Translations under genes and position numbers: made by a program
The notes under the pieces: generated by a model
Databases searched by the model: none
Seen by the model: the letters and a program-made list of their open reading frames with translations, nothing else
What the model was told of the DNA's origin: nothing
Source: Desulfurococcaceae archaeon
GTDB lineage: Archaea > Thermoproteota > Thermoprotei_A > Sulfolobales > NBVN01
Direction: 5' to 3'
DNA: 38,862 bases
Assembly (NCBI GenBank): GCA_020833415.1
Contig: JAJHQJ010000010.1
Span: 1 to 38,862, forward strand
Shown here: piece by piece, positions 431-25,120 of the stretch
Layout: each line of letters opens with the position of its first letter
Position numbering within the stretch: position 1 is the stretch's first letter

Positions 431-1258
431 CTAGTACGTTATCTCCACCAGTAGGGCTAGGAGGCTGACTACGAGTATCCACGTTAGTGCTACCAGTAGG
501 GACGGGGGCGGCGGTAGGGTAGCTACTAGAGCCGATGCTGTGGCTGAGCCGAGGGCTAGTGCTAGGGCGATCCTCTTGAGGGTTATCCTGGGGTGGCCGC
601 TGCGCGCTAGGACCCTAAGTACCGCGGCGGCTAAGCTACCCCTGTACCTAACGTACTCGGGTAGCCTGTGGTAGACCTTCAGACCGCTATCGGTTAACCT
701 GTAGAAAACCCTCCTACCACCCAACCTACCCGACCTCACCACCCTCTTGAAGAGCCTCGGCTCCTCCTCTACGTAGGGTCTTAGGTAGTCCTCGAGGGTC
801 GCCGGGCTCAGCCTAGTCACCGAGGCCAGCGTACTGAGGGGTAGCTCGTAGCCCCTAGACGACCCCAGGGCCACCAGGACGTCGTAGAGGTAGGAGAACC
901 TGATGATATCCCTGGGCATGTCCTGGACCGCGGCCGCAGGTCCCCCGGTACCCGCCGCCCCCCTACCACCCTCCAAGACCGTTACTAGGGTGCTGAACAC
1001 CCTCCTACCCTTCTCCGTGAGGACCAGCTCCCCCTCGCCCTCGACTAGGCCCTTAGCCCTCATCTTACGCAGCGAGTCCAGGACGGCCTTCCTCCTCTCA
1101 CCCAGGACCTCCACAAGCCTATCCACGGAGCACCTACCTAGGTACCCCACGGTGAGCAGTATCCTAAGCTGTAGCCAGCCTCTGGCGAAGTCTACAACAG
1201 CATCGACCTCCCTAAGAGCTGATACCGAGTTCAGTAGGTCCGGTAGGCCGCTACCCAT
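431..1258 (-). CDS. Membrane-tethered winged-helix regulator, ArnR-like, divergent from the archaellin gene
   Basis: The open frame reaches 1318, but ATG 1258 is preferred because a TATA box lies about 32 bp upstream, giving about 275 residues. The first half has a winged-helix domain (about residues 30-85, LRILLTVGYLGRCSVDRL then LRKMRAKGLVEGEGELVLTE). A Gly/Ala linker follows, then a second helix-turn-helix-like region (about 120-200). The protein ends in two hydrophobic helices (about 227-246 and 252-272). In Sulfolobus, ArnR and ArnR1 have an N-terminal HTH and two C-terminal membrane helices, are encoded beside the arl genes, and activate arlB; topology and position match here. The second HTH region is extra relative to that description. 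The family assignment is inference from architecture and context. Regulation of arlB by this protein is likely but not shown. Confidence 0.6.
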   Translation of the reverse strand: MGSGLPDLLNSVSALREVDAVVDFARGWLQLRILLTVGYLGRCSVDRLVEVLGERRKAVLDSLRKMRAKGLVEGEGELVLTEKGRRVFSTLVTVLEGGRGAAGTGGPAAAVQDMPRDIIRFSYLYDVLVALGSSRGYELPLSTLASVTRLSPATLEDYLRPYVEEEPRLFKRVVRSGRLGGRRVFYRLTDSGLKVYHRLPEYVRYRGSLAAAVLRVLARSGHPRITLKRIALALALGSATASALVATLPPPPSLLVALTWILVVSLLALLVEITY

Positions 1259-1284
1259 AGCCGGCAAGTTAACTACGGTAACGC

Positions 1285-1297
1285 AGTAAATAAGAAC
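1285..1297 (-). promoter_or_regulatory. TATA box for the ArnR-like gene
   Basis: The minus strand reads GTTCTTATTTACT. Its centre lies about 32 nt upstream of ATG 1258, so the transcript would carry only a few untranslated bases. This supports ATG 1258 over the more upstream in-frame ATG at 1318, which would lie before the transcription start. Confidence 0.5.
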
Positions 1298-1407
1298 AGG
1301 AGACCGGCGGCAACCCACCCCCAGCTACCCACCCGTCGACCAGCGGTCGAAACGGACCCCAAATGTTAAGTAGGGCTACCGCGGATCAAAACGTGAGGTG
1401 CGTGCAG

Positions 1408-2058
1408 GTGAGGCCCAAGCTCAGGAGGGCTAGGAGGGGTATAGTAGGTATCGAGGCAGCCATAGTCCTAATAGCGTTCGTGCTAGTGGCAAGCGCCCTA
1501 GCATTCGTAGTACTAAACATGGGCATGTTCACAACGCAGAAGACCAAGGAGGTGATAGCTAGGGCTTACGAGGAGGCGACGAGGGCTATAGACATAGCTG
1601 GGAACGTGGTAGCTAAGACCTCTGATGGTAGTGTAGACCTAGTAGCAATACCCATAAAACTGACGGCGGGCTCTAGAGCAGTAGACCTAAACAAGACGGC
1701 AGTAGCGATAACCGTTATAAACCCGGATGGCTCAGCTCAGCACACGGACAACGGCTACAGGTATATAGATGAAAAGACGTTCTCTAAAATCAAAGACTTC
1801 GGCAGTGATATAACAGGCTTGAATGAGCTGGAGGCTACCTTCGTCTACGTGAGGACCGACGAAGATGCCACTACAGGTGATAACCTACTGGAGCCTGGAG
1901 AGATAGTGCTGCTGGTCTTCAAGGCACCTACTGGCACAGGCCCCTACAGTAGGATCATAGTAGAGATTAAGCCTCCTCAGGGTGCTTCAATAACCGTTGA
2001 GAGGGTAGTGCCGCCTAAGATAGACAGTACCTACGTAGACCTAGACATAGGTGGGTAA
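1408..2058 (+). CDS. arlB: Archaellin (archaellum filament subunit)
   Basis: The precursor has a class III signal peptide: basic residues ending in RRARRG, then the mature sequence IVGIEAAIVLIAFVLVASAL. Cleavage after the Gly by the ArlK/PibD peptidase leaves the conserved hydrophobic helix with Glu at +5 that packs into the filament core. The rest is a beta-rich outer domain of normal archaellin length (about 200 residues). ATG 1363 is open, but GTG 1408 gives an 11-residue leader typical of archaellins and has GAGGTG seven bases upstream; GTG 1393 and 1402 are also possible. Only one archaellin is seen. It is the first gene of the arl cluster and is followed by a perfect palindrome that probably makes its transcript more abundant than those of the downstream genes. 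Confidence 0.9.
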   Translation: MRPKLRRARRGIVGIEAAIVLIAFVLVASALAFVVLNMGMFTTQKTKEVIARAYEEATRAIDIAGNVVAKTSDGSVDLVAIPIKLTAGSRAVDLNKTAVAITVINPDGSAQHTDNGYRYIDEKTFSKIKDFGSDITGLNELEATFVYVRTDEDATTGDNLLEPGEIVLLVFKAPTGTGPYSRIIVEIKPPQGASITVERVVPPKIDSTYVDLDIGG

Positions 2059-2078
2059 GCCCTTATAAGGGCTTACCC
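2053..2078 (+). terminator. Perfect 26-bp palindrome overlapping the arlB stop; terminator/attenuator and possible internal promoter
   Basis: The arms GGGTAAGCCC and GGGCTTACCC are exact reverse complements around a central TTATAA, and the arlB stop codon lies inside the left arm. A stem-loop here could end most transcripts after arlB. The centre CCTTATAAGG also resembles a TATA box about 33 bp before the next start (ATG 2099), so it may double as a promoter for the downstream genes. Partial termination after the archaellin gene is known for Sulfolobus; its operation here is inference. Confidence 0.6.
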
Positions 2079-2098
2079 AACCCTAGTAGGGGTGTGAG

Positions 2099-2998
2099 AT
2101 GAGCCGGGTTTTTTACTCCACTCCCCTCTCCCTAGGTGTGAGTAAGGAGGTTGCGGTAGTCGTCCTAGCCTTCGTAGCTACGGCCGCGACCTACGGCTTC
2201 GTCCTCTACTCGTACACGTCTTTCTTCCGCGCTCAGCCCCCCGCTCAGTTCTCGGCTCACTCAGCCTACCTCCTCTACTACGGTGGCTGTGTGTGGAGGG
2301 TCGACGTACCTATCTCGGTGAGCGGGGGCCCCGTAGACCCGACCCAGGTGGTTATCCAGCTGTCGGTGGGCGGCTACTCCGCGAGCTTGAACGCCTCCAC
2401 GACTAGGTTCTCCGCTGGTGGTAGGGTCTTCTACGGCTCTGTAGCTGGGTTACTGACCTCGGGGAGGGTCGTGGCCGTAGTTTACGGAGGTGGGGAGGGG
2501 GTCCCCCTAGACCTCTTCGTGTTCGTAGACCCTCTGGGTAGGCTTAACGTAGTCGTAGACGACGACTCGGATGGGGTTATGGATGACTCCACCCTCCTGA
2601 GGTTCTCCCAGGGGGTCGGTGCCCAGGTCCCCCTGGACCTGGGGTCGGAGGTGGTGCTAACCGCTACTAAGGGCGAGGTACTACCCCTAGAGTACCTAAC
2701 GGTCCTGGCGTCCGCCTCGAAGCCCGGTGCCTCGGTCGAGGTAGTTGGTGGGGGTCTACGCTACCTCATCCCGGTTCCAGAGCTCCTCACCAGCCTGAGG
2801 ACCCCTACCCTGGTGGTGAGCGCGGTCGAGGGTTCCGCAGGTCTCTACGCCTCGGTTATTATCCCGAGGTGCGTTGTCCCGGAGGGCTCTAGGCTGGGGA
2901 TCAGGGTAGCGGTAGCCTCAAGCACCGTAGCCGAGGCTACCGTAGCGGTACCCAGCGTGGGGGGCGTGACCGGGGCCGTAGTGGTGCCGCTAAGGTGA
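2099..2998 (+). CDS. Membrane-anchored archaellum-cluster protein with an EF-hand-like calcium loop
   Basis: I do not recognise the family. The 299-residue protein has one N-terminal hydrophobic helix (about 16-38, VAVVVLAFVATAATYGFVLY) preceded by LGVSKE, which vaguely resembles a class III pilin/archaellin leader (Gly, then Glu four residues on). The remainder is a Ser/Gly/Val-rich beta-type extracellular domain. Near residue 155 the sequence DDDSDGVMDD fits the DxDxDGxxDD calcium-binding loop of dockerin/EF-hand-like sites. ATG 2099 follows GGGGTGTGAG. The next gene overlaps its stop by 4 nt, so it is translated together with the archaellum genes. A minor archaellin, cap or anchor component is possible but unproven. 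Confidence 0.65.
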   Translation: MSRVFYSTPLSLGVSKEVAVVVLAFVATAATYGFVLYSYTSFFRAQPPAQFSAHSAYLLYYGGCVWRVDVPISVSGGPVDPTQVVIQLSVGGYSASLNASTTRFSAGGRVFYGSVAGLLTSGRVVAVVYGGGEGVPLDLFVFVDPLGRLNVVVDDDSDGVMDDSTLLRFSQGVGAQVPLDLGSEVVLTATKGEVLPLEYLTVLASASKPGASVEVVGGGLRYLIPVPELLTSLRTPTLVVSAVEGSAGLYASVIIPRCVVPEGSRLGIRVAVASSTVAEATVAVPSVGGVTGAVVVPLR

Positions 2999-3222
2999 GC
3001 ACTACGTCCAAGAGGTTCAGAACCGTTGTGGTACTCTACACAGTCCTCGGGGCAACCCTATCCGCCGTCGGCGCCCTAACCGCGTGGCTATCCAACGCCG
3101 GGGCGGTACCATCGCTCACCAACCCGGTCGCCAGGGTCGCGGTAATAGCGCTAGGCCTCGCACTCCTGGCAATCGGTACGCACATAGCCATAGCCGGTCT
3201 AGCTAGCTTAAGGAGTAAGTAG
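2995..3222 (+). CDS. Small two-helix membrane protein of the archaellum cluster
   Basis: The gene encodes a 75-residue protein of unknown function. GTG 2995 overlaps the preceding stop (GTGA), which suggests translational coupling. It has two predicted membrane helices (about residues 10-31 and 46-70) with a short loop, a basic N-terminus (SKRFR) and a basic C-terminus (SLRSK), so both ends are probably cytoplasmic. No catalytic motif is visible. Its place between the calcium-loop protein and the ArlD/E-like gene suggests a role in the archaellum basal body or its anchoring, by context only. Confidence 0.6.
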   Translation: MSTTSKRFRTVVVLYTVLGATLSAVGALTAWLSNAGAVPSLTNPVARVAVIALGLALLAIGTHIAIAGLASLRSK

Positions 3223-3388
3223 CTGGCCACCAACGACACGACCCCGGCGGACTGCAGGACCTAGGCGGGCTATTATGGCTCTAGCCCTACCATCAATTCG
3301 GGTCCCCAATACTACTACGCCCAACGACCTGCGCCCTCTCCGACGCTGGGCGCGGGGACTGCAAACTCCTATACTAGGTTTAGAAAGC

Positions 3389-3400
3389 GTTATTAAATAG
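3389..3400 (+). promoter_or_regulatory. TATA box ahead of the ArlD/E-like gene
   Basis: GTTATTAAATAG is the best TATA-like element in the 188-bp gap 3223-3410, which otherwise shows no gene. It is preceded by AGAAAGC, a possible BRE. It would start transcription near 3421, which is after ATG 3411. A weaker element, GTTTAGAAAG at 3379-3388, would instead place the start next to that ATG. This indicates a second transcription unit for the motor and secretion genes, separate from arlB. Confidence 0.4.
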
Positions 3401-3410
3401 CTCCTACTAT

Positions 3411-4182
3411 ATGTTTAGAAGGGGGGTGCGACTTACTGAGGTGGTCCTGCGACTGCCCGCTGTGTCGAGCGCTGGTCCACCCCGTACTACGTAGGCTAGC
3501 AGCTACAGCAGAGGTCCGCGAGCGGGTCGCCCCGGAGGTAGTTGAGGAGCCGCCGGCCTCGGAGCCACCCCGAACGCCCTACGAGGTCTTAAACCCCCCG
3601 GTAGCCCCGCAACCCTCCCCGCCTCCGGTGGAGAGGGGGGTAGAGGGGGGACCCCTTGAGGTTAGACTACCGGAGGAGTTCGTTGAGAAGTTTGAGAGTC
3701 TTGAGAGGGAGGTGAGTACCCTACATAGGGAGCTCAACGCCCTCCGCGATAGCCTGACGACCCTGGCGGTAGAGCTTAGGGAGGCTGTGGCGGAGCTGGG
3801 TAACCCGTTCAACGTACTGAGGGGCCCCACCAACGGTGGCGAGCATAAGGACGGGGGTGGGAGCGGGAGAGGCTCGAGGAGGCTCCAGCCAACTACGTTC
3901 CTAAGCATCCTGAAGGTCCTCTACAGCATGCTCGAGGAGGTTGGTAAGGAGCAGGCGCTGCTGCTGGTTAGGGGGTACGTAGATGCCGGGGTAGTGGATA
4001 GGGAGGTGGGGGAGGCCCTGGCTAAGATGGTCGAGCTAGCTGATGCTATGAGGAGGAGCGGGCTCTCTGTAGAGAAGCAACTCCCCTACACCTACGCCAT
4101 ACTCAAAGCCCTTAACGTGGGCGACCGGGACCTCGACGATTACGTACTGAGGGAACTACTCAAGCGTGGGAGACTTGGGTAG
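3411..4182 (+). CDS. ArlD/E-like archaellum signalling protein (coiled coil + C-terminal ArlCE-type domain); start region frameshifted
   Basis: A canonical frame starts at GTG 3628 (184 residues), but the frame is open back to 3397 and reads protein-like text with a CDCPLC cysteine cluster and a Pro/Glu-rich linker. No ATG, GTG or TTG occurs in that part. ATG 3411 joins it if one G of the run 3421-3426 is skipped, giving about 256 residues. A coiled coil follows (about 3661-3800, heptads of L and V). The C-terminal domain (3898-4180) contains KVLYSMLEEVGKEQ and YVDAGVV, closely like the ArlD/ArlE domain of euryarchaea (LLERVG...YYVDIGWIS). ArlC/D/E proteins link the ArlH/ArlI motor to chemotaxis adaptors such as CheF; crenarchaea usually carry ArlX here instead. 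The next gene starts inside its last codons. Confidence 0.65.
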
Positions 4183-4666
4183 GGGGGTCTCCAACGTAGT
4201 AGCTGAGGCCCTACTGCTGGTCGTTGGGGTATCCCTAGCTGCAGCCCTACTGTCGGCAGTGGTCTCCAGGGTATCCATCGTTCAGAGTAGGTTCTCGAAC
4301 GTTGTCTCGGAGCTAGCCCAGTCGGTGGTTGAGAGGCTCGCGTACGTCTACGCTACGTACAGTCCCTCCGAGGGCGCGTTCGTGGTGTACCTAAAGAACG
4401 TAGGTAGCTACCCGATCTACCAGCTCAACGCATCCACAGTTCTCTTCGGTGGTGCGGAAGGCCTGCAGTACCTACCCTACTGCAGTAGCCAGAGGGTCGG
4501 CTGCTGGAGGGTGGTGGAGCTCGGGGTAGTCAACAACACCCTAGACCCCGCTGAGACCGTAGCCGTATACGTGTACAACTCGACCAGCGTAACCCCGCCG
4601 TACCGCTTCAAGCTGGTGACCGCCAGGGGGACGGCGGTCGAGGCTACGTTCACCGTCTACTGGTAG
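4166..4666 (+). CDS. arlG: Archaellum stator/periplasmic protein ArlG
   Basis: The 166-residue product starts at GTG 4166, overlapping the previous gene by 17 nt; TTG 4175 is an alternative. It has a short basic N-terminus and one membrane helix (about 12-33, VVAEALLLVVGVSLAAALLSAVV) with a pilin-like RG|VSNVVAE start. The rest is a beta-sandwich-type outer domain with Cys pairs (YCSSQRVGC). In archaella, ArlG forms a filament capped by ArlF outside the membrane and together they act as stator against the S-layer. The assignment rests on the single-helix architecture, length and its place just before arlF-arlH-arlI-arlJ. ArlF and ArlG are weakly conserved, so which is which is less certain than that both are stator proteins. 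Confidence 0.75.
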   Translation: MGDLGRGVSNVVAEALLLVVGVSLAAALLSAVVSRVSIVQSRFSNVVSELAQSVVERLAYVYATYSPSEGAFVVYLKNVGSYPIYQLNASTVLFGGAEGLQYLPYCSSQRVGCWRVVELGVVNNTLDPAETVAVYVYNSTSVTPPYRFKLVTARGTAVEATFTVYW

Positions 4667-4674
4667 GTGGCGCC

Positions 4675-5181
4675 ATGTCAACCTCGGTAGTAGCCTCCGC
4701 AGCGGTCATGGGTTTAGCGATGGTGATCCTACTCGCCGTGCTGGCCAACTTCGTGGTTACCTACGTAGCCACGGCGGGTAGGTTGCTGGAGCTCTCGAGG
4801 TACTACAGGAGGCCTACGCTACTAATCGGCGGAGCCCGCGTTGTGGGCGGGGGCCGCGTGGTCTTCAACGTAACGAACCAGGGTCCGGAGTCCGTAATCG
4901 TAGACTCCTCGACCACCCTCCTACTCGACTACCAAGCTGGAGACGGCTCGGGGCGTGTTACTGAGCTACTCAGCTACGGTACATCCTGGTACGTAGAGGC
5001 CCTAGTAGTCGGGGGCTCGACCTACCCCGTAGCTCCCGGGGCCGCCGTAGAGGTGAAGCCCGGGGCCACGGCCCGCGTTGTTGCTACAGTAGGTGGTGGT
5101 ATAGCCCCGGGTAGTACTGTGATCCTAGTACTAGTAGATAGGTGGGGCTCGAGGGTTGAGTATGTCTTCGCAGCTACCTAG
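4675..5181 (+). CDS. arlF: Archaellum stator protein ArlF
   Basis: ATG 4675 begins MSTSVVASAAVMG, like the N-terminus of ArlF proteins (MGFSVSASAAII). One membrane helix spans about 5-34. The outer domain (about 50-168) is a Val/Gly-rich beta fold with the pattern VVFNVTNQGPESVIVD, typical of ArlF (a beta sandwich that binds the S-layer). It follows arlG by 8 bp and overlaps the start of arlH by about 20 bp, so it is translated with them. With ArlG it is expected to tether the motor to the cell envelope. Confidence 0.8.
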   Translation: MSTSVVASAAVMGLAMVILLAVLANFVVTYVATAGRLLELSRYYRRPTLLIGGARVVGGGRVVFNVTNQGPESVIVDSSTTLLLDYQAGDGSGRVTELLSYGTSWYVEALVVGGSTYPVAPGAAVEVKPGATARVVATVGGGIAPGSTVILVLVDRWGSRVEYVFAAT

Positions 5182-5884
5182 ACTAACGACGGTGAGCACT
5201 GGTAACGAGGAGCTGGACATGAGGCTAGGAGGGGGTATCCCCCACCCGTCCCTAGTACTCATGGAGGGTGACAACGGTACCGGGAAGACGGCCCTATGCG
5301 CCCAGTTCACCAAGGGGTACCTCATGGATGGGATGAGGGTGGTCTACGTAACTACCGAGAACACCGTTAGGCACTTCCTAGAGCAGGCGCGTAACATAAG
5401 TATAGACCTAACGGACTACTTCCTAAAGGGTCAGCTAACGGTCCTATCGTCCAACATCCGGGGGGCTAGGTGGGATAGGGATAGGGCTAGGGCGGCCGCC
5501 GAAGCCCTCATAAAGTTCGCCGAGTCCGGTGTAGCCAGGTACAGCGCCCTCATCATAGACTCCATGAGCCAGATCCTCCACTACCTCGGGGATGGGGAGA
5601 TCCACACCCTACTAACCAGCCTGAGGGGCGTGGTTAGGAGGGGTACTACCGTGATAGTCACCCTACACCCAGGGGTGGTCGGGGAGAGCGTGGTGAGGGA
5701 GTTCGCAGCAGCCTCCGACGTCTACATGAGGCTGACCCTCGGTGAGATCGGGGGTAGGCTGGTGAAGGTGATCAACGTAGTTAAGATACGGGGGGCCCCA
5801 ACCCTAGCTGAGACGAGCATAGCGTTCGACGTAGACCCGGCCTTCGGTATCAAGGTAGTCCCACTAGCCCTAGCTAAGGTATGA
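5162..5884 (+). CDS. arlH: Archaellum motor ATP-binding protein ArlH (KaiC/RecA-like)
   Basis: The gene encodes a RecA-fold regulatory ATPase of the archaellum motor, which binds ArlI and ArlJ on the cytoplasmic side. Walker A is GDNGTGKTA near residue 36, and Walker B is ALIIDSMS near residue 129. VYVTTENT lies between them, at the position of the conserved KaiC-family segment. About 240 residues is normal for ArlH. ATG 5162 is chosen; TTG 5156 is in frame two codons upstream. The start lies inside arlF. The usual ArlI gene follows after 20 bp. Confidence 0.92.
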   Translation: MSSQLPRLTTVSTGNEELDMRLGGGIPHPSLVLMEGDNGTGKTALCAQFTKGYLMDGMRVVYVTTENTVRHFLEQARNISIDLTDYFLKGQLTVLSSNIRGARWDRDRARAAAEALIKFAESGVARYSALIIDSMSQILHYLGDGEIHTLLTSLRGVVRRGTTVIVTLHPGVVGESVVREFAAASDVYMRLTLGEIGGRLVKVINVVKIRGAPTLAETSIAFDVDPAFGIKVVPLALAKV

Positions 5885-5904
5885 GGTGGGAGTAGCTGGC
5901 CCAG

Positions 5905-7659
5905 GTGAAGCGGTACCAGGTAGCGGCTCGGGGTGCTACCGACCTCTCCACATACCTCAGGAGGTACCCGTACCTAGCTAGGTACATCCAGCAGGTAGCT
6001 ACCGAGGTCGGGGTACCCCAGTTCCTCGGGCAGGACGTGCCGGGCGACCTGAAGAAGGCGGTCAAGGTCAACGTGGTGTACACAGTCGACGACGGGGTCT
6101 TCATACACGTCTACACGCCTCCACGCGGTACCGAGTCGGGCTACAGGAAGTACGTTGTGGTGGAGCCGCCGAAGCCTCCACCTGAGCTGCTGAGGGCTGT
6201 AGAGGAGAAGCTAGCGGCCGTACTCACGGAGAGGGACGCCGCCTCTAGCCTTACCGAGAGGAGGGAGGTGCTGATGAGGGCTCTTGGGAGGGTGATCGAG
6301 GTTGTAGATACCCCGGTGAACTACAGGGACTTACTGAGTGGGGGACTGGGTAAGCTCAGGAGGATCCCGGTGTACTCCGCGGACTACCAGAACCTACTGT
6401 ACCACTTGGTGAGGGATAAGGCCGGTCTAGGGGTTCTAGAGCCCCTACTTAAGGATAGGTACATAGAGGACATCTACTGCAACGGGGTCGGCTACGTCTT
6501 CATAGTCCACAAGGTCTTCGGACCCCTCGAGACGAGCCTACACTTCAGTACCCAGGAGGAGCTCGACAGGTTCATCATAGAGCTGAGTGAGAGAGTCGGT
6601 AAGCCGGTGAGCCACGCGAGACCCATAGTCGACGCGACCCTACCGGACGGTAGTAGGATAAACATAGTCTTCGGTAGCGACGTCAGCCTGAGGGGGAGTA
6701 GCTTCACCATCAGGAAGTTCAGCAAGATCCCCATGAGCGTGACCGAGCTGATAAGCCTTGGGACCATGGATGAGTACGTGGCTGCCTACCTGTGGATACT
6801 CCTCCTAGAGGGGATGAGCGGGTTCATAAGCGGTGAGACGGCGTCGGGGAAGACCACCACCCTCAACGCCATAACGGCGTTCATAAGACCTACGGCTAAG
6901 ATAGTCTCGATCGAGGACACGGCCGAGATCCAGCTACCCCACGAGAACTGGCTGCGCGAGCTTACCCGGGACACGGGCAGCGTTGAGACCAGCGTCACCA
7001 TGTTCGACCTCCTCAAGGCAGCTCTGAGGCAGAGACCTAACTACATAATAGTCGGTGAGATCAGGGGGGCCGAGGGTAACGTAGCCTTCCAAGCCATGCA
7101 GACGGGTCACCCAGTTCTATCCACATTCCACGCCGCAAGTGTTGAGAGGCTCGTCCAGAGGCTGACGTCGCCACCGATAAACGTACCCATAACACACATA
7201 GACAACCTGAACTTCGTGGTAATCCAGAGCGCTGTGTACAGGGAGGGTGTGCTCATGAGAAGGGTGATAAGCGTGAACGAGATAGTGGGCTACGACCCTA
7301 AGGCTAAGTCGGTGATCTACATACCTATATACACGTGGGACCCGGCTAGGGATAGGTTCACGTTTAGAGGTAGGGGTACGAGCTACCTACTCGAGGAGAA
7401 GATAGCCGTAGCCAGGGGCATACCTAGGAGGGAGATGGGGCTCATATACGATGAGCTCAATCTGAGAGCTAAGATACTTAAGAGCCTAGTCGAGAGGAGG
7501 GTCTTCAACTACTACGACCTGTTCAGAGTCATAGCGAGGGTCTACAGCATGGTTGACGCGAAGGCCAAGGCCTCGCCCAAGGAGGAGACCCCCTACGCCA
7601 TAATTAAGGCCCTCGAGGAGGCCCTCGCCAGGATACGCCGGGGCGAGCTGGTAAAGTAG
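5905..7659 (+). CDS. arlI: Archaellum assembly and rotation ATPase ArlI
   Basis: The product is a type II/IV secretion superfamily hexameric ATPase that powers both filament assembly and rotation. The N-terminal domain (about 1-230) is followed by the RecA-like core: Walker A GETASGKTTT near residue 310, Asp box SIEDTAEIQLP near 335, Walker B IIVGEIRGAEG near 380, and His box HPVLSTFHA near 401. The length of 584 residues is at the upper end for ArlI. The start is GTG 5905, giving MKRYQV, with GAGGTGGG about 14 bp upstream. It is followed by arlJ after 9 bp, the conserved HIJ order. Confidence 0.95.
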   Translation: MKRYQVAARGATDLSTYLRRYPYLARYIQQVATEVGVPQFLGQDVPGDLKKAVKVNVVYTVDDGVFIHVYTPPRGTESGYRKYVVVEPPKPPPELLRAVEEKLAAVLTERDAASSLTERREVLMRALGRVIEVVDTPVNYRDLLSGGLGKLRRIPVYSADYQNLLYHLVRDKAGLGVLEPLLKDRYIEDIYCNGVGYVFIVHKVFGPLETSLHFSTQEELDRFIIELSERVGKPVSHARPIVDATLPDGSRINIVFGSDVSLRGSSFTIRKFSKIPMSVTELISLGTMDEYVAAYLWILLLEGMSGFISGETASGKTTTLNAITAFIRPTAKIVSIEDTAEIQLPHENWLRELTRDTGSVETSVTMFDLLKAALRQRPNYIIVGEIRGAEGNVAFQAMQTGHPVLSTFHAASVERLVQRLTSPPINVPITHIDNLNFVVIQSAVYREGVLMRRVISVNEIVGYDPKAKSVIYIPIYTWDPARDRFTFRGRGTSYLLEEKIAVARGIPRREMGLIYDELNLRAKILKSLVERRVFNYYDLFRVIARVYSMVDAKAKASPKEETPYAIIKALEEALARIRRGELVK

Positions 7660-7668
7660 CCCGACCCA

Positions 7669-9303
7669 GTGATGGCTGTGCCGAGGAGGTTAGCAGACCC
7701 CTACTTCCTAGCCGCACTAGCTGTAGCGGTGGCTATCGTAGCCTACTTTAGGGAGCCTACCTACGCACCGCTACTCCTAATACCGGCAGCCGTCGGTCTA
7801 GTACGCATAGGGCTACCCCTGCTCAGGAGTAAGCTGAGGGTCTCCGCAGTAGACCTAGACCTCCTCTTCCTACTCCTCCACATGTACTCCGTCTCCACGG
7901 GCAAGCCCCCGCGTAAGAGGCTCTTCCAGCTGAACTGCATCGTGGGGGACTACGGGGAGTACGGCAGGGCCCTAAACAGGATAGCCGGTCTAGCTGTGGA
8001 CTGGGGTTACGGGTTCGTCGCTGCCACTAGGTACGTAGCTAGGGAGGTTAGGAATAGGGCGCTGAGCGACTTCCTCCTAAGGTTCAGCGAGGTACTGAGG
8101 ACTGGGGAGGACCCGACTCTGTTCCTCGAGACGGAGTTCGCGGCTGCTAGGAGGAACTACCAGTCCCAGTACTACAGGACCGTGGATATCCTGAGGATCG
8201 TACTGGGCCTACACACCACGGTTATGAGTGCTGCCGCCTTCATACTGACCGTCATGAGCGTCCTCCTGATGTTCATCGGTGGCGATGTAAGCGTGTACTT
8301 CGTTACCTTCGTGAGCTCCACCACCCTCGTAGCTATGTTCACCGCAGTGATATACGTAGCGGTACCCAAGGAGTGGATAACCCCTAGGGCTAGGCCGAAG
8401 CCAGCTCGGATCTATAGGAGGTACAACATAGCGCTAGCAGTAAGCCTACCCCTAGCGGCGGTCCTCGGCTACCTAGCGTACAGAGAGCTGGGCGGTGCCG
8501 AGTGGTCCCTGATGGCGGTCGGCGGGGTTATGCTAGTACCCGGGCTGGCCGCTAGGAGTATAGAGAGTAGGGTGAAGAAGCTGGAGTCCTTCTACACGAT
8601 CTTCGTACGTAGCCTCGGCATGACGTACGCCATAATCCCGAACTACCAGAAGGCCTTCAGCTCCCTACTTATGAGCGACTTCGGGCCCCTGATGGGGCCT
8701 CTATCCCGCGCCTACTCCCGGGTGAGTAATGGGATAGACCCGAGGATAGCCTGGAGGTACTTCATCTACGATACGTGGAGCGACCTAATAGCTAGGTCTA
8801 CGAACGTGTTCGCCGATACGGTCGACGCGGGGGGTAGCACCAGGCTCGCCGGGACCCTCCTAAGCGACCTCTGCACCAGGATAAGCGACCTCAGGAGCCT
8901 CAGGGAGAGGGTTGCGAGGACTTTTGAGGTGACCACCTACATGATGCAGGCCCTGGTCTCGGCTATAGCTGTGGCGATCATAAACATAGTGAGACTGTTC
9001 TCGGACTACGTCAGGGTCCTCGCGATCGGCGTGGGAACCGTGGCGTTCTACGAGCTACCGATGATGGCCTTAACCCCGGAGACCGTAGCTATCATGACCA
9101 ACATCACGATGGTCTTCCTAGCCCTACTGACGGTAATGAACGCCATAGCTATCAAGGTAGCCTGCGGGGGAATTCCGGAGGCCTTCTGGCAGCAGGTATC
9201 CATCCTACTCGTCGTTACCAGCGGTGCTGTAGTTGGGATGAGGTTCATGGTGGAGGCGATCTTCGGTAGCCTACTCGTACCTCCGGCCCTAGTCCCAGGG
9301 TAG
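7669..9303 (+). CDS. arlJ: Archaellum membrane platform protein ArlJ
   Basis: This polytopic TadC/PilC-type platform protein of 544 residues is the membrane partner of ArlI and ArlH. Hydrophobic helices cluster near the N-terminus (about 10-50), in the middle (about 185-235 and 255-300) and at the C-terminus (about 420-540). They are separated by two basic cytoplasmic domains (about 60-180 and 305-420), the two-domain layout known for ArlJ/PilC. GTG 7669 or the next codon ATG 7672 can start the protein. It closes the conserved arlHIJ set. Confidence 0.9.
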   Translation: MMAVPRRLADPYFLAALAVAVAIVAYFREPTYAPLLLIPAAVGLVRIGLPLLRSKLRVSAVDLDLLFLLLHMYSVSTGKPPRKRLFQLNCIVGDYGEYGRALNRIAGLAVDWGYGFVAATRYVAREVRNRALSDFLLRFSEVLRTGEDPTLFLETEFAAARRNYQSQYYRTVDILRIVLGLHTTVMSAAAFILTVMSVLLMFIGGDVSVYFVTFVSSTTLVAMFTAVIYVAVPKEWITPRARPKPARIYRRYNIALAVSLPLAAVLGYLAYRELGGAEWSLMAVGGVMLVPGLAARSIESRVKKLESFYTIFVRSLGMTYAIIPNYQKAFSSLLMSDFGPLMGPLSRAYSRVSNGIDPRIAWRYFIYDTWSDLIARSTNVFADTVDAGGSTRLAGTLLSDLCTRISDLRSLRERVARTFEVTTYMMQALVSAIAVAIINIVRLFSDYVRVLAIGVGTVAFYELPMMALTPETVAIMTNITMVFLALLTVMNAIAIKVACGGIPEAFWQQVSILLVVTSGAVVGMRFMVEAIFGSLLVPPALVPG

Positions 9304-9342: not shown

Positions 9343-11745
9343 ATGGAGTTCTCGGTGGGGGCCATATCGGGGCCTCGCTCTAGGCTACTCCTCTACGTAC
9401 TTGTAGCCCTAGTAGTTCTCAACAGCTCTACCCAGGTACTCTCGCAGAGCCCCCCGACGTTCCCACCGCAGGTAGTCAGGAGGTCCGTAACGTGGTCGGA
9501 CGGTGGGTTACTGTGGATACTCGACGTCGCCCTGAGCTCGCCCATGCCGTGGTATGTGGGTGGCCTAGCTAACGTCTCAGTTACGGTAACCCTCGGGGTG
9601 GCACCACCGGGTAGGAGCCTCAGCCTAGTTCTCCGGTTGGTAGGTCCAGGTGGTACTGAGCTAGCCTCCAAGTTCTTGGGGACTCTCTCGGGGGAGTCCC
9701 AGAGGGTATGCGGAGACCTACAGCTGGTCGTCTCCCCACTCTACTTCAGTACCCGCGCCGGGGAGATCTCCAAGGTGAACCTAAGGGTGGTTCTAGAGGG
9801 GTACTCCGACAGTAGAAAGTATAACGCCACGGCGGACTTCCCGGTGCTGATCTCATCGCCCCGGTCTAGGCTAAGTATCAGCGTGGGGATCAACGGGAGA
9901 CCCGACTACAACTACATGGTCGAGTCCATAGCTCGGGTTAATATAAGCGTACTGCTACGGAATACTGCCGAATCGTACGTAGACGGCGCGCTCCTAATGA
10001 TATACGTGAACAACACTCTAGCCGATAGGATCTCAATCGGTAGGGTCGGGCCCCTAGAAACGCGGGAGGTCACCACCACGCTACTCAACTACTTTAGACC
10101 GGGGGTCTACTACATCCGGGCGGTCGCGAGCTACTACCTCCAGGAGGGGGTGGTGGAGGAGGCTAGCGCTATCGGCCTGCTGGAGGTAATCACCGGCTCG
10201 AGCGTTGTGCTGAACGTCGATAGGTCGGTGGCTGTTGAAGGTACGCAACTGACCTTCTCAGGCGTGGTCTCACCCGCACCTAGGGGTGGTCAGGTAGTTC
10301 TCGAGAAGCTCGTCGGCGGCGTGTGGGTAGGTATAGGCACTGCCACTGTAGACCCCGGGGGCTTCTTTAGGTTCCGGTGGGTAGCCGAGGACGTACCCCC
10401 CGACCTCGACTACGTAGTACACACCTTCAGGGTCAGGGTTCCGGTATCCCTGGTAGGCGGTGTAGCTAGTCTCTACAGCCCGACCGTATCTGTGCAGGTC
10501 TTCTCATCCAGGATGGTGGTGAGGTTCATTGCGGACATCTCTCTAAGCATAGTACCGGATACCGTAGCTAGGGGGCTGAAGGCGTCGTTCTACGTAAGGC
10601 TACGTCCGCAGTTACCCGTATGCATACCCATTAAGCTGGTCTACAGGGTCCCGGAGCTCTACGAGTGGGCTGAGCTAGGTGAGGTAGTGGTATGCGGGGG
10701 CGAGGGAGTGGGTGAGGTAACTATAGAGCTACCCCCCGGGAGGTACCCGGTTAAGGCCTTGGTATACTCAAGGTCGGGTAGCGTCGAGAGCTTACCCAGG
10801 GTCCTCACCGTAGTAGCAACACCTAGGCTGGTGTTGGAGGCTAAGAGCCCCCTCTTCTACGGGGAGTCCCTGGAGGTTAGGGTGGTGCTAAGCCCAGTAC
10901 CCGACGGGGCTGCCCACGGGTGGCTGGGCGTCACGATTAACGGCTCCAGGTGGTTCAGCTCAAACATCTCCATAGTAGGGGGCTACGCCACCGTAAGCCT
11001 TGGGAGAGTGAGCGCGGTAGGTGTACTGAACATCACGGTCTGCGCCTCAGCCTACGGTACTACCGTATGTAACGCGACCCTGGTGAAGGTACTTAGGCCC
11101 TCCATATCCATATCCCCACCCTCAGTAACTGCGGAGACCGGCGCGTCGGTCAGCTTTACCGTAGCGGTATCCCCGGGGCAGACCTACCCGCTCAGGGTTT
11201 CAGTACTGCAGGACTCCACCGTAGTTAACTCCTACAGCGTCGAGACCGACGGCACCGGAGTGGCTAGGCTCACGGTTAGCGCCCCGCCGAGAGCCGGTAG
11301 GTACTCCGTTACAGTCGAGATACCGGGAACGGGTCTATCGGCATCGGCGACCCTCAACGTCATAGAGGTAGTCAGGTCCATCAGCTTGGAGATCCTCAAC
11401 AAGTCCGTACCCCCCTCAGCTACGGTAGTCGCTAGGGTAACCCTGCACCCACCACCGGCGAGCCCGGTGCAGGTAATCCTGCTGATCCAGGCTAACGGTA
11501 GGTGGAGCCCGCTGGCCTACGGACTCATCCTATCGGGTGGGGAGGGTGTGGTTAGGTTCCAGGCCCCCGCCGATGCGGGTACGTACAGCGTTAAAGCTAG
11601 GGTCGAGGCTATGCAGGTCGAGAGTAACGTGGTAACCCTACAGGTCTCCCCGCAGACGGTCATCGCGCAGGAGTACCTCTACGCACTGGTAGCCGCCGCT
11701 GCCGCGGTAGGTGGGGTACTCCTACTCATCGGTAGGAGGAGATGA
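9343..11745 (+). CDS. Large secreted Ig-like-repeat surface protein with C-terminal membrane anchor
   Basis: The product is about 800 residues. A signal peptide is visible (SRLLLYVLVALVVLNSS, about residues 13-29, cleavage probably near the following S/Q-rich stretch). The body is Val/Ser/Gly/Pro-rich beta sequence with several Ig-like or CARDB-like segments. One unit runs near residues 290-380 (VAVEGTQLTFSGVVSP) and two similar units are near 590-680 and 685-780 (each ending TYSV or RYSV and then TLNV or TLQV). Near the C-terminus YLYALVAAAAAVGGVLLLIG is followed by RRR, so the protein stays in the membrane with its body outside. GTG 9355 is an alternative start. Its stop overlaps the start of a membrane-bound winged-helix gene, suggesting that the two work together. 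It might be an S-layer-associated or archaellum-associated protein; no specific function can be assigned. Confidence 0.7.
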   Translation: MEFSVGAISGPRSRLLLYVLVALVVLNSSTQVLSQSPPTFPPQVVRRSVTWSDGGLLWILDVALSSPMPWYVGGLANVSVTVTLGVAPPGRSLSLVLRLVGPGGTELASKFLGTLSGESQRVCGDLQLVVSPLYFSTRAGEISKVNLRVVLEGYSDSRKYNATADFPVLISSPRSRLSISVGINGRPDYNYMVESIARVNISVLLRNTAESYVDGALLMIYVNNTLADRISIGRVGPLETREVTTTLLNYFRPGVYYIRAVASYYLQEGVVEEASAIGLLEVITGSSVVLNVDRSVAVEGTQLTFSGVVSPAPRGGQVVLEKLVGGVWVGIGTATVDPGGFFRFRWVAEDVPPDLDYVVHTFRVRVPVSLVGGVASLYSPTVSVQVFSSRMVVRFIADISLSIVPDTVARGLKASFYVRLRPQLPVCIPIKLVYRVPELYEWAELGEVVVCGGEGVGEVTIELPPGRYPVKALVYSRSGSVESLPRVLTVVATPRLVLEAKSPLFYGESLEVRVVLSPVPDGAAHGWLGVTINGSRWFSSNISIVGGYATVSLGRVSAVGVLNITVCASAYGTTVCNATLVKVLRPSISISPPSVTAETGASVSFTVAVSPGQTYPLRVSVLQDSTVVNSYSVETDGTGVARLTVSAPPRAGRYSVTVEIPGTGLSASATLNVIEVVRSISLEILNKSVPPSATVVARVTLHPPPASPVQVILLIQANGRWSPLAYGLILSGGEGVVRFQAPADAGTYSVKARVEAMQVESNVVTLQVSPQTVIAQEYLYALVAAAAAVGGVLLLIGRRR

Positions 11746-12200
11746 TAGCCCTCCAAGCCACAGAACCCCCTGGCTCTACCCAACTCATCGGTCTACTGCA
11801 GGTGCTGATTGCGGTGGCCATCCTCATAGCTGTAGCTATAGTTGCTATCTCCCTCACTACACTATCGAGACCTACCGAGAGCTCCAGACCCCCCGAGAGA
11901 GGTGGGGGGCAAGACATCGAGGAGGAGGCGGGCCCTAGGCGTGTGCCGGCACTAGTGGAGAAGTACGAGGTTGAAGTACTTAGGTACCTGAGTAGAGCTG
12001 AGGCGGTCGATATACAGGACCTGCTAAGCCAGCTACCAGACAGCAGGGAGTACGTAGGTGAAGCTATTTCAAGGCTCGCTGAGTCCGGACTGGTGGAAGT
12101 ATCGAGCGGGATCGTAGCCCTCACAGAGAAAGGGAGGAAGATGCTCGAACTACTTAGGGAAAAGCGGTGGCTGAAGGACGTAGAGAAATCCGAGGAGTAG
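11742..12200 (+). CDS. Membrane-tethered winged-helix protein coupled to the surface protein
   Basis: The gene encodes 152 residues, with ATG 11742 overlapping the upstream stop as ATGA. There is one hydrophobic helix near the N-terminus (about 17-42, LLQVLIAVAILIAVAIVAI) and a charged linker (about 43-72). A winged-helix domain follows (about 75-140, with DIQDLLSQL, a recognition-helix-like segment, SGLVEVSSGIVALTEKG). The C-terminus is Lys/Glu-rich. The DNA-binding end should be cytoplasmic. In Sulfolobus, arnR lies just downstream of arlJ; this gene holds a similar place but has the helix N-terminal, the reverse of ArnR. It may regulate the arl cluster, its own operon, or sense the surface protein; this is inference. 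Confidence 0.65.
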   Translation: MIALQATEPPGSTQLIGLLQVLIAVAILIAVAIVAISLTTLSRPTESSRPPERGGGQDIEEEAGPRRVPALVEKYEVEVLRYLSRAEAVDIQDLLSQLPDSREYVGEAISRLAESGLVEVSSGIVALTEKGRKMLELLREKRWLKDVEKSEE

Positions 12201-12219: not shown

Positions 12220-12760
12220 CTAGATGCCCATCCTTACTAGTCCATGTTTATTCATCGCATCCAGGGACTTCCACCTCGCCCATGCTTCACGGGCGATCAG
12301 CGTGGGGTCATGGGCGGCCGTCGAGCCCAACGGCACGGGGCCCCCATCTAGCGTAGACCCGCCTAGGCGATGGGGGCAATGCCCCGAGCCTAGGCGGGCC
12401 CTGAGGAGCAGGTTGTAGCTCGCTACAACATCTCTATGCCATAGCTCCCCGCCCTTGGAGCACCTACCAACTCTACCGCCGTTCCTGTAAGCGATTGGGG
12501 CGTTATGTATTGGACACACCCTAGAGGTGTTCCTTGGGTTTACATAGATTACTGGGACGCCGTGCTCCCTAGCCTTCTCCTCGATAGCTCTCTGGACTCC
12601 CTTGAAGGACGCCTGGTATACCCTGTGCCTGAGCTGATCGTCCCCGATGTGGTTGATCATTTCTTTAGCAGGGTTTTTACCAAGTGTCAAGCCTTTGGCA
12701 GACCTCCTTGGGCCTCGGCAACCTCTCCGAAGACTCTGGAATAGCTTATACCAGCAATAA
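12220..12760 (-). pseudogene. tnpB: TnpB (IS200/IS605-family) remnant, C-terminal part
   Basis: The minus-strand frame reads about 156 residues from a TTG at 12690 and stays readable upstream to about 12760 (WYKLFQSLRRG). It matches the TnpB C-terminus: ASFKGVQRAIEEKAREHGVP, then VNPRNTSRVCP, then a zinc ribbon and the final RuvC motif HRDVVASYNLLLRA. The zinc ribbon is damaged: CPIH and RCSKGG stand where CPxC/H and CxxCG are expected, so the last Cys is missing. The N-terminal RuvC-I and RuvC-II regions are absent, since a full TnpB has about 380-430 residues. No tnpA and no clear element ends were seen. It marks the left end of a lower-GC island and is probably non-functional. Confidence 0.75.
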
Positions 12761-13007: not shown

Positions 13008-13979
13008 TTAGACCTTGAGTTCTATGAACCAGGGCTTCATGCTATACCTTAGTTCCTGGTCTCTATGCCTTGGTTTTTCCAGTATGAATAGCTTCTCGTG
13101 GTATATTAGTAGGAAGTCCCTGTCCCTCAGCTTGCTCCAGACCTCTCTAGTTGTCTTCATCCTGTGCTGAACTTTTATCACCTCCTCCTTTAAGACGAAG
13201 CCTACGTCGAGGAGTATCATCAACGCGTAGTGAGTTATTGGTACGTAGTGCCTCTTGACCCTCGTATCCCCAATTAGTATGCCCAGTACTCCACCAGGCT
13301 TTAGCACTCTGTAGATCTCTCTCGCTACCTGCCTAAAGAGAGTTAGGTACTCCTCTAGGCTCGTAGTCCTGGACAGATCTCCTTCGGTTCCCTGCTCACC
13401 GTACTCGATGATGTTAAAGTACGGCGGGTGGGTAGCCACCAAGTCTATGGAGTTATCCGGTACCTTATCGAGTTTCCTGGCATCGCCGTGGTAGACCTTG
13501 TACCAAGCGCTATAGGCGCTACCCGCGGTGTTACCGTCCTTAACGTAATCGACCAGCCTCTTGGGCTTTCTCTCGTGTAGAGCCTTCACAAGGTAGTAGA
13601 GCCTGTGATGGGTTAAGATGACGGCGTTGTAGTTTATGTCCACAGCTATGCAGTTCCTGTTCAGTAGCAAGGCCTCTATACAGGTCGTTCCAGAGCCTAC
13701 CATAGGGTCTAGAACGGTTTCACCAGGGTTGGTGTACCTCAGTATCAAGGCGCGGGGTATCTGGGGGGCCCAGTTACCCCTGTAGTCGCCCCTGTGGGTA
13801 GCCCAAGAACCTCTCTCAGGGAAGCTCCAAACGGTTGCAGAGATATCTGTGAGTTCTCCAGGTAAGGGCTCGAGCCTCCTAACCTCTATAGGTTCGAGGG
13901 GGATTACCTGGTCCTCGATAGCTATAGCTTTATGCTTGGAGACGAAGTCTAGGTACTCCTCTACGGGGACCTCCCTCAT
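13008..13979 (-). CDS. DNA methyltransferase of the N4-cytosine/N6-adenine type, motif I before motif IV
   Basis: The 323-residue protein has the SAM-binding motif I DPMVGSGTT at residues 91-99 and the catalytic motif IV as THPPYF at 183-188 (the family form is TSPPY or DPPY). It also has WATHRGDYRGNWAPQIPR (about 59-76), a segment typical of a group of archaeal site-specific methylases, and GVLGILIGDTR further on. The order motif I then IV is opposite to that of the common beta class. It starts at ATG 13979, about 73 bp after an unknown gene on the same strand. No recognisable restriction enzyme is adjacent, so it is an orphan-type or broken restriction-modification methylase. Target base and site cannot be told from sequence alone. 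Base composition is more AT-rich than the flanks. Confidence 0.85.
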   Translation of the reverse strand: MREVPVEEYLDFVSKHKAIAIEDQVIPLEPIEVRRLEPLPGELTDISATVWSFPERGSWATHRGDYRGNWAPQIPRALILRYTNPGETVLDPMVGSGTTCIEALLLNRNCIAVDINYNAVILTHHRLYYLVKALHERKPKRLVDYVKDGNTAGSAYSAWYKVYHGDARKLDKVPDNSIDLVATHPPYFNIIEYGEQGTEGDLSRTTSLEEYLTLFRQVAREIYRVLKPGGVLGILIGDTRVKRHYVPITHYALMILLDVGFVLKEEVIKVQHRMKTTREVWSKLRDRDFLLIYHEKLFILEKPRHRDQELRYSMKPWFIELKV

Positions 13980-24593: not shown

Positions 24594-24654
24594 GTACCTT
24601 CACCGCAGGTTAGCCTACCTAGGTAGCTTTTAGATCTAGCGCTTGAGCACCTCC

Positions 24655-24670
24655 GTTCAGTTAACTGAAC
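24655..24670. promoter_or_regulatory. Perfect 16-bp palindrome, probable operator
   Basis: GTTCAGTTAACTGAAC is an exact palindrome in the 113-bp gap between the divergent beta-propeller and winged-helix genes. Right next to it lies CTAAATAG (24671-24678), a TATA-like box about 32 bp before GTG 24707. The beta-propeller gene has its own box, TAGATCTAAAAG on the minus strand (24626-24637). A dimeric HTH protein bound here would overlap the B-recognition/TATA area of the regulator gene. Autoregulation is therefore likely, by inference. Confidence 0.6.
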
Positions 24671-24706
24671 TAAATAGCGCCCCCGCGGATCGCCGTAGGG
24701 CTTTCA

Positions 24707-25120
24707 GTGGAGTCCAGCGAGCTGAGGGGCACCTCGCTGAGGATCTACCTACACCTACTGGAGTCCGACTCGCCCAAGGGTATTAGGGAGCTGTCTAGGG
24801 AGCTGGGGCTACCTGTTAGCACGGTACACTACCACGTTAGGAAGCTTAGGGAGCTGGGGTTAGTTAGGGAGGTTCCGGAGGGTCTCGTAGTATCTAGGAG
24901 GGTTAGGCTTGAGGGGTTCGTGTACCTAGGTAGGAGGGTCGTACCTAGACTAGCCTTCTACTCAGCATTCTTCACCGGAGTCCTCCTAGGGCTGGCGGGT
25001 ATCACGCTAACAAGCGGAGACCTGAACCCGGATAGGGTTGTAGCACTAGTGGTGTCCGCCGTAGCTACAGCTGTAACAGCTCTGGAGGCGTACTACGTTA
25101 GGAGGTCCCTCCTATCCTAG
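24707..25120 (+). CDS. Membrane-tethered winged-helix regulator with two C-terminal helices
   Basis: The 137-residue protein starts at GTG 24707. The N-terminal winged helix (about 8-62) has PKGIRELSRELGLPVSTV as HTH, VHYHVRKLRELGLVRE as recognition helix and wing. The C-terminus has two membrane helices (about 82-102 and 110-130). The layout is the same as in ArnR-type one-component membrane regulators, but shorter. The recognition helix carries STVHYHVRKL, like MarR/ArsR-type proteins that bind palindromic DNA, and a perfect palindrome lies just upstream. It probably controls itself and the divergent beta-propeller gene. Its stop overlaps the convergent DUF4350-like gene by 4 bp. Confidence 0.7.
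   Translation: MESSELRGTSLRIYLHLLESDSPKGIRELSRELGLPVSTVHYHVRKLRELGLVREVPEGLVVSRRVRLEGFVYLGRRVVPRLAFYSAFFTGVLLGLAGITLTSGDLNPDRVVALVVSAVATAVTALEAYYVRRSLLS

What the first reader, a model, noticed from the sequence alone, without database searches (positions are those of the whole stretch)
9343..12200. Surface Ig-like protein translationally coupled to a membrane-bound winged-helix protein
The ATGA overlap ties a large extracellular anchor protein to a protein with one membrane helix and a cytoplasmic DNA-binding domain. With the 24655 locus this makes two cases of an extracellular beta protein next to a membrane-tethered transcription factor. A surface-sensing, one-membrane signalling pair is a plausible undescribed system.
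Basis: inference. Interest (0 to 1): 0.55.

Follow-up and report, generated by a model that had tools for sequence, protein, structure and literature searches.

The report
Archaellum-operon Ig stalk and membrane winged-helix
In some heat-loving archaea the genes for the swimming motor end with two extra genes, one for a long surface stalk and one for a small membrane protein with a DNA-binding-type fold, and this conserved pair may link the motor to the cell surface or to gene control.

Summary
The two genes are the 3' end of an archaellum (arl) cluster: divergent ArnR-like gene; arlB; arlX-like and arlF/G-like genes; arlH; arlI; arlJ; Ig; winged-helix.

The winged-helix profile has 16 strong hits (E<1e-12) in 214 genomes of the order. 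Fourteen lie 1.9-2.6 kb downstream of arlJ; two cannot be tested (contig breaks). A 17th lies in another order. In all 17 the nearest large same-strand gene upstream encodes a C-terminally anchored protein (a fragment in one).

In an ArlJ tree of 87 rows, 28 rows form one supported branch; all 28 have such a protein beside arlJ (22 by the strict criterion), against 1 of 59 outside. The Ig family occurs without the winged-helix gene in 13 genomes; the reverse was not seen.

Membrane-bound winged-helix regulators of archaella are known (ArnR), and an ArnR homologue is present here too. The small protein has its membrane helix at the other end and lacks ArnR's basic recognition helix, so DNA binding is unproven. 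I favour a stalk-coupled regulator (0.45) over a structural adaptor (0.35). Novelty: new variant of a known kind.

The parts
9343..11745 (+). Ig-stalk gene: 800 aa, N-terminal signal/TM segment, all-beta tandem domains, C-terminal TM helix and RRR tail, 10 N-glycosylation sequons
   Evidence: homologues
11742..12200 (+). TM-winged-helix gene: 152 aa, N-terminal TM helix, flexible linker, C-terminal winged helix; ATGA overlap with the Ig gene
7669..9303 (+). arlJ (platform protein); identified by similarity to arl loci, position after arlI, and a sub-threshold T2SSF match
   Evidence: (E 9.9e-5, below gathering)
5905..7659 (+). arlI (motor ATPase)
   Evidence: T2SSE E 1.4e-39
5156..5884 (+). 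arlH
   Evidence: FlaH PRK06067 E 3.8e-72 (above cut-off), ArlH NF052589 E 2e-56 (below cut-off)
4675..5181 (+). second arlF/G-type gene, assigned by position and conserved order only (no Pfam match)
4166..4666 (+). arlF/G-type gene (Arch_flagellin domain)
   Evidence: PF01917 E 4.3e-7
3628..4182 (+). arlX-like soluble gene; weak assignment, through a homologue in L055 and a fused form in L074 that match ArlX PF24151 below its cut-off; start may lie further upstream
2995..3222 (+). 75-aa two-TM gene, possibly the membrane part of a split ArlX
2099..2998 (+). unknown gene of the cluster, 299 aa, N-terminal hydrophobic segment
   Evidence: no family
1363..2058 (+). arlB (archaellin)
   Evidence: PF01917 E 3.9e-33
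431..1318 (-). ArnR-like gene, divergent from arlB: winged helix near the N terminus and two C-terminal TM segments
   Evidence: NF041016 ArnR E 9.1e-20 over 34-290 (71 bits, below the equivalog cut-off of 400)

Best explanation
The pair is a conserved accessory module at the 3' end of one lineage of crenarchaeal archaellum clusters. The large protein is secreted and held by a C-terminal membrane helix; it forms a chain of Ig-like domains beside the archaellum motor. The small protein most likely sits in the membrane with its N terminus out and carries a winged-helix domain on a flexible cytoplasmic linker; it was found only with the stalk. Most likely mechanism: the stalk touches the S-layer, the base of the filament or a surface; its state passes to the small protein through neighbouring membrane helices; and the winged-helix domain then adjusts arl transcription alongside ArnR. 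Shown: genes, order, conservation, lineage restriction. Predicted: folds and topology. Inferred: contact of the two proteins, DNA binding, and the signal. I put the module itself at about 0.9 and this regulatory mechanism at 0.45.
For: 16 of 16 strong profile hits in 214 genomes: 14 lie 1.9-2.6 kb after arlJ, 2 not testable; 8 of the 16 were not in the query alignment. G214 of another order has arlJ-Ig-winged-helix too. Gap between the genes 13 nt or less in 10 of 17. The small gene was never seen without an anchored secreted protein upstream (17 of 17, one of them a fragment). One ArlJ branch holds all 15 pair rows and all 12 Ig-only rows. The winged-helix domain aligns with ArnR's (hhalign 96.8%). 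In G118, G125, G142 and G183 an ArnR-like gene follows the small gene on the same strand. ArnR is a published membrane-bound archaellum activator (PMC6396743 passages).
Against: The recognition helix lacks ArnR's invariant basic residues and the C-terminal helix is better conserved than the recognition helix. Generic archaeal winged helices also match the profile (184 of 214 genomes at E <= 0.001), so likeness to ArnR is no proof of shared function. The Ig family occurs without the small gene in 13 genomes, so the stalk has a role of its own. ArnR is present as well in many of these clusters, so a second regulator is not obviously needed. The charge difference across the TM helix is weak in 7 of 17 sequences. 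In G118 and G125 the genes are 198-213 nt apart and in G142 1755 nt apart with an opposite-strand ORF between.
Confidence: 0.45

Rival explanations
1. Structural accessory pair. The Ig chain is an additional stator or bushing that ties the archaellum motor to the S-layer, as ArlF/ArlG are thought to do, and the small winged-helix protein is its cytoplasmic adaptor, docking the stalk onto ArlX, ArlH or ArlI through its conserved C-terminal helix. It does not bind DNA.
For: Position among the motor genes; lineage restriction of the stalk; stalk present without the small gene in 13 genomes; non-basic recognition helix and best-conserved C-terminal helix; membrane-proximal 240 residues are the part shared with the divergent stalks of G118, G125 and G183; published need for S-layer anchoring of the motor (passages of PMC8978795, and PMC12448462).
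Against: ArlF/G-type genes are already in the cluster; a long disordered linker is odd for a rigid adaptor; an ArnR-like gene next to the small gene in 4 genomes suggests regulation.
Confidence: 0.35
2. Surface adhesin carried along in the arl cluster: the Ig protein mediates attachment and the small protein only controls its synthesis or stability; neither acts on the motor.
For: Tandem Ig-like, membrane-anchored surface protein; tight gene coupling.
Against: The strict link to arlJ and to one ArlJ lineage (16 of 17 independent Ig hits within about 3.3 kb of arlJ, the 17th on another contig) fits a motor-related role better.
Confidence: 0.12
3. Chance neighbourhood: two unrelated genes that happen to overlap.
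For: Four-base overlaps are common in prokaryotes (general knowledge, no call).
Against: Order kept across several families and in a second order.
Confidence: 0.02

Closest known systems
ArnR / ArnR1, membrane-bound one-component regulators of the Sulfolobus archaellum (passages of PMC6396743; section 16 of PMC4858521)
   Same: Winged-helix/HTH domain tethered to the membrane and encoded in arl loci of Sulfolobales and Desulfurococcales; profile similarity of the winged helices.
   Different: ArnR has an N-terminal HTH, a sensor part and two C-terminal TM segments and a basic recognition helix; the small protein has one N-terminal TM helix, no sensor part and a neutral recognition helix. A true ArnR homologue is present in the same cluster. 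Note: PMC4858521 says that arnR-like proteins have an N-terminal TM domain, unlike PMC6396743, so proteins like this one may already lie unremarked in that family's arCOG.
ArlF/ArlG stator proteins of the archaellum (passages of PMC8978795; PMC12448462)
   Same: Extracytoplasmic beta proteins of the arl cluster, thought to tie the motor to the S-layer.
   Different: ArlF/G-type genes of about 166-168 aa are separately present; the Ig protein is 800 aa, anchored at its C terminus, and has no archaellin domain match.
arCOG00381 (pfam11748) membrane-bound transcription regulators of haloarchaeal pilus loci (section 16 of PMC4858521)
   Same: Membrane-bound regulator encoded in a type IV pilus locus.
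   Different: Other lineage; no Ig partner described in the section read; sequence relation not tested.
Macroglobulin/complement and contactin chains (Foldseek)
   Same: Several beta-sandwich domains in tandem.
   Different: Fold-level likeness only, TM-score 0.2 or less over the whole chain; no claim of relationship.

Membership tests
Archaellum (arl) cluster | arlB, arlH, arlI and arlJ together in one cluster | tested here: met
   (arlJ by a sub-threshold T2SSF match plus similarity and position)
Archaellum (arl) cluster | arlF, arlG and arlX (or arlCDE) | tested here: inconclusive
   One F/G-type gene passes its Pfam gathering score, the other and arlX rest on position and weak matches
ArnR family (for the 152-aa protein) | N-terminal HTH followed by sensor part and two C-terminal TM segments | tested here: not met
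   One N-terminal TM helix, C-terminal winged helix
ArnR family (for the 152-aa protein) | Basic recognition helix with K77, D81, K85, K89 of the ArnR alignment | tested here: not met
ArnR family (for the 152-aa protein) | Match to the ArnR model NF041016 | tested here: not met
   No match at E <= 0.01; the window's 431-1318 gene does match (E 9.1e-20, below the equivalog cut-off)
ArnR family (for the 152-aa protein) | Binds the arlB promoter | not testable with these tools
   needs EMSA or ChIP
Ig-domain surface proteins (for the 800-aa protein) | Curated Ig-family score reached | tested here: not met
   Ig_3 24.1 bits against 30, Invasin_D3 22.4 against 33
Ig-domain surface proteins (for the 800-aa protein) | Tandem beta-sandwich domains by predicted structure | tested here: met
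ArlF/ArlG stator | Archaellin-type N-terminal domain (PF01917) | tested here: not met
   No PF01917 match in the 800-aa protein
ArlF/ArlG stator | Anchors the motor to the S-layer | not testable with these tools
   needs imaging or binding assays

The most novel reading that the evidence does not exclude
A transmembrane surface- or assembly-sensing device built into one archaellum lineage: an Ig stalk reads S-layer contact or load on the motor, and a directly coupled single-pass winged-helix protein turns this into a transcriptional or motor response. It would give these archaea, whose phylum is reported to lack chemotaxis (PMC8978795 passage), a way to adjust motility to the cell surface.
Probability: 0.25. 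Interest if true: 0.8.

Novelty: new variant of a known kind. Interest (0 to 1): 0.5.

Why it matters
It marks one lineage of archaella by a dedicated extracellular stalk and, in part of that lineage, by a membrane winged-helix partner. I did not find either described in the full-text searches or in the sections of PMC4858521 that I read. How crenarchaeal archaella are anchored, and how the state of the surface or motor reaches arl expression, are open questions that this module would make testable.

Tried and rejected
Recognition-helix charge looked decisive against ArnR, but a second HTH family as control is near neutral too, so I did not use it to exclude DNA binding. I asked whether the ~750-aa protein beside arlJ in family f2 and G062 is an Ig-stalk homologue: hhalign says no (probability 0.2); in f2 the second, ~505-aa protein is the homologue. 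The idea of a free-standing sensor pair was dropped for an archaellum module. The Foldseek hits of the Ig chain to complement proteins were taken as fold-level only. Supplements of PMC4858521 could not be read (no look-ups allowed). Rows dropped: ArlJ rows under 440 aa are not in the tree; G052 (no arlJ on the contig) and G214 (incomplete ArlJ) are not in it either; L183 and L079 were fetched and not analysed; L076 was mapped but not in the census; most loci of the capped search lists were not opened. In the second-locus check I fetched 20 of the 22 best genomes for that winged-helix family; the two left out (G042, G052) have the two genes on different contigs.

Full report
WHAT IS THERE. The first encodes 800 aa with an N-terminal hydrophobic segment, a C-terminal membrane segment near residue 779, an RRR tail and 10 N-glycosylation sequons; the second, overlapping it by ATGA, encodes 152 aa with one N-terminal membrane segment. 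AlphaFold models, each from an 8-sequence alignment, give an all-beta chain (mean pLDDT 82) and, for the small protein, a helix 12-40, a disordered linker (42-67) and a winged helix 69-151 (pLDDT 82-92 for residues 71-150). Foldseek lists CggR/MarR-type winged helices, none below E 0.001 (best 4.6e-3), and for the large protein tandem macroglobulin/Ig-domain chains such as CD109, C5 and contactin at low TM-scores.

CONTEXT. The ten genes from 431 to 9303 form an archaellum cluster. On the minus strand lies an ArnR-like gene (NF041016, E 9.1e-20, below the equivalog cut-off); on the plus strand arlB (PF01917, 3.9e-33), an unknown 299-aa gene, a 75-aa two-TM gene, an ArlX-like gene, two ArlF/G-type genes, arlH (FlaH model, 3.8e-72), arlI (1.4e-39) and arlJ. 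ArlX, the second F/G gene and arlJ rest partly on position and on sub-threshold matches. Ig and winged-helix genes follow arlJ on the same strand. The window genome is an unnamed assembly, 82% complete.

IS THE PAIR CONSERVED? Of 214 genomes of the order, ArlJ is found in 95 and the Ig family at E <= 1e-10 in 25. The winged-helix profile matches something in 184 at E <= 0.001, mostly generic HTH proteins, but only 16 genomes score below 1e-12: G000, G003, G001, G012, G019, G042, G052, G055, G169, G170, G171, G172, G118, G125, G142 and G183. In 14 of 16 the gene lies 1.9-2.6 kb downstream of arlJ with one large gene between; in G052 the contig begins at the Ig gene and in G142 arlJ is on another contig. 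Eight of the 16 were in the query alignment, so eight are independent finds. The next hit, G179 (E 7.8e-11), is a 207-aa protein on a contig where no arlJ was found. Of the 25 Ig genomes 17 were not in the query; in 16 of these the Ig hit lies within about 3.3 kb of an arlJ hit and in G142 it is on another contig. A class-wide Ig search (229 genomes) added G214 and G216; G214, in another order, has arlJ, an 801-aa Ig protein and a 155-aa winged-helix protein in a row, and G216 has a 644-aa anchored protein beside an arlJ piece and no winged-helix hit. Among the 17 winged-helix cases the gap to the upstream gene is 13 nt or less in 10, 28-38 nt in 3 (G055, G171, G169), 198-213 nt in 2 (G118, G125), 1755 nt in G142 with an opposite-strand ORF between, and undefined in G019, where no standard start lies near the Ig stop. 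In G019 the Ig frame itself holds a stop. In G142 the upstream Ig gene is only a 256-aa piece at the contig start.

A LINEAGE OF ARCHAELLA. A tree of 87 ArlJ rows of at least 440 aa (quick IQ-TREE) puts 28 rows on one branch (SH-aLRT 98) with all 15 pair rows, all 12 Ig-only rows and G062. Beside arlJ in these 28, a same-strand protein of at least 350 aa with N- and C-terminal hydrophobic segments starts within 900 nt in 22; in 3 (G003, G019, G142) it is there but called truncated; in 3 (G051, G159, G160) it is on the opposite strand within 2 kb. Outside the branch 1 of 59 meets the strict criterion (G188) and 4 of 59 the looser one; 5 of the 59 have under 1.2 kb of contig left. The tree is a quick one with long branches and composition flags, and the groups were labelled by me. 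The 627-651-aa proteins of G118, G125 and G183 were not found by the Ig profile, but profile comparison shows homology over the last 240 residues including the TM segment (97.8%). In family f2 and G062 the anchored protein nearest arlJ is a different ~750-aa protein (no relation); in most f2 genomes the Ig homologue of about 505 aa follows it. So the rule '28 of 28' is about an anchored secreted protein beside arlJ, not about one protein family.

DEPENDENCE. The winged-helix protein was not seen without an anchored protein upstream (17 of 17, G142 a fragment). The Ig family occurs without it in 13: G031, G041, G051, G156, G157, G158, G159, G160, G161, G165, G081, G086 and G180. G161 was missed by the genome search but matches at E 4.7e-23 in its locus; the contigs of G156 and G157 end inside the Ig gene, so a winged-helix gene beyond it could have been missed there, although the genome-wide profile search found no strong hit in either.

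REGULATOR OR ADAPTOR? For regulation: the winged helix; profile similarity to ArnR's (hhalign 96.8%; other archaeal winged helices would also score); a flexible linker; an ArnR-like gene directly downstream on the same strand in G118, G125, G142 and G183; the published precedent of ArnR (passages of PMC6396743; section 16 of PMC4858521). In G205 two ArnR-like genes flank the arl cluster, which fits the ArnR/ArnR1 pair of Sulfolobus acidocaldarius; that G205 is this species, and that arnR1 lies there, is recalled or inferred. Against: ArnR-like proteins have an invariantly basic recognition helix (net +2 to +5 in 16 sequences; K77, D81, K85, K89 invariant), the small protein's runs from -5 to +3 (17 sequences; Mann-Whitney P 2e-6, indicative only, since the sequences are related), and its C-terminal helix is better conserved than the recognition helix. 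The control family of the second locus runs from -1 to +2 (21 sequences), so DNA binding is not excluded. For a structural role: position among motor genes, lineage restriction, and the published view that the motor is tied to the S-layer by ArlF/ArlG (passages of PMC8978795; PMC12448462).

TOPOLOGY. Residues before the small protein's TM helix carry 0 to -2 net charge in 17 of 17; the 15 residues after it carry -1 in 2, 0 in 5 and +1 to +4 in 10. This leans to N-out, C-in without proving it.

KNOWN OR NEW? Neither gene matches an NCBIfam model that names it. Eight full-text searches showed no paper on such a module; of the listed papers I read passages or sections of six (PMC6396743, PMC4858521, PMC8978795, PMC8105010, PMC13286277, PMC12448462). 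The Pyrodictium delaneyi proteomics paper speaks of flagellins only in the passages seen. PMC4858521 reports arnR-like genes in arl loci of Sulfolobales and Desulfurococcales and says that they have an N-terminal TM domain, which differs from PMC6396743 and may mean that proteins like this one were filed there; its supplementary tables could not be checked.

THE SECOND CASE. The secreted beta-propeller gene 22437-24593 (PF09826, E 2.4e-108) and the winged-helix gene 24707-25120 with two TM segments are also conserved neighbours: of 20 relatives fetched, 17 have the propeller beside it (13 head to head, G006 overlapping head to head, G030 convergent, G022 and G048 on one strand) and 3 do not in the stretch fetched. 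It is a different arrangement and family, not a second copy of this module.

VERDICT. A real, conserved accessory module of one crenarchaeal archaellum lineage that I did not find described. Two mechanisms remain open. New variant of a known kind, interest 0.5.

Noticed in passing
22437-25120: Secreted beta-propeller gene (PF09826) head to head with a winged-helix gene that has two TM segments; adjacent in 17 of 20 relatives fetched. A separate conserved pair.
   Followed up: partly
12220-12690 (-): ORF with a TnpB/Cas12f1-like zinc-ribbon domain (PF07282, E 1.1e-13) directly after the winged-helix gene; looks like a transposon-gene remnant.
   Followed up: no
2995-4182; L074 3901-5067: ArlX may be split here into a small two-TM gene and a soluble gene; L074 carries a 388-aa form with both (ArlX PF24151 E 1.8e-5, below cut-off).
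   Followed up: partly
2099-2998: Gene of unknown family (299 aa, N-terminal hydrophobic segment) between arlB and the arlX-like genes; similar proteins at the same place in L051, L053, L055, L054 and L052.
   Followed up: no
ArlJ tree, family f1 (G000, G003, G001, G012, G019 against G013, G020, G024, G026 and others): One family holds two distant archaellum lineages, which suggests transfer or old duplication of whole arl clusters.
   Followed up: no
L219 (G188), 47 nt after arlJ: A 1223-aa anchored secreted protein beside arlJ outside the Ig branch.
   Followed up: no
13008-13979 (-): DNA methylase of the N6_N4_Mtase family (PF01555, E 2.5e-27) just beyond the cluster.
   Followed up: no
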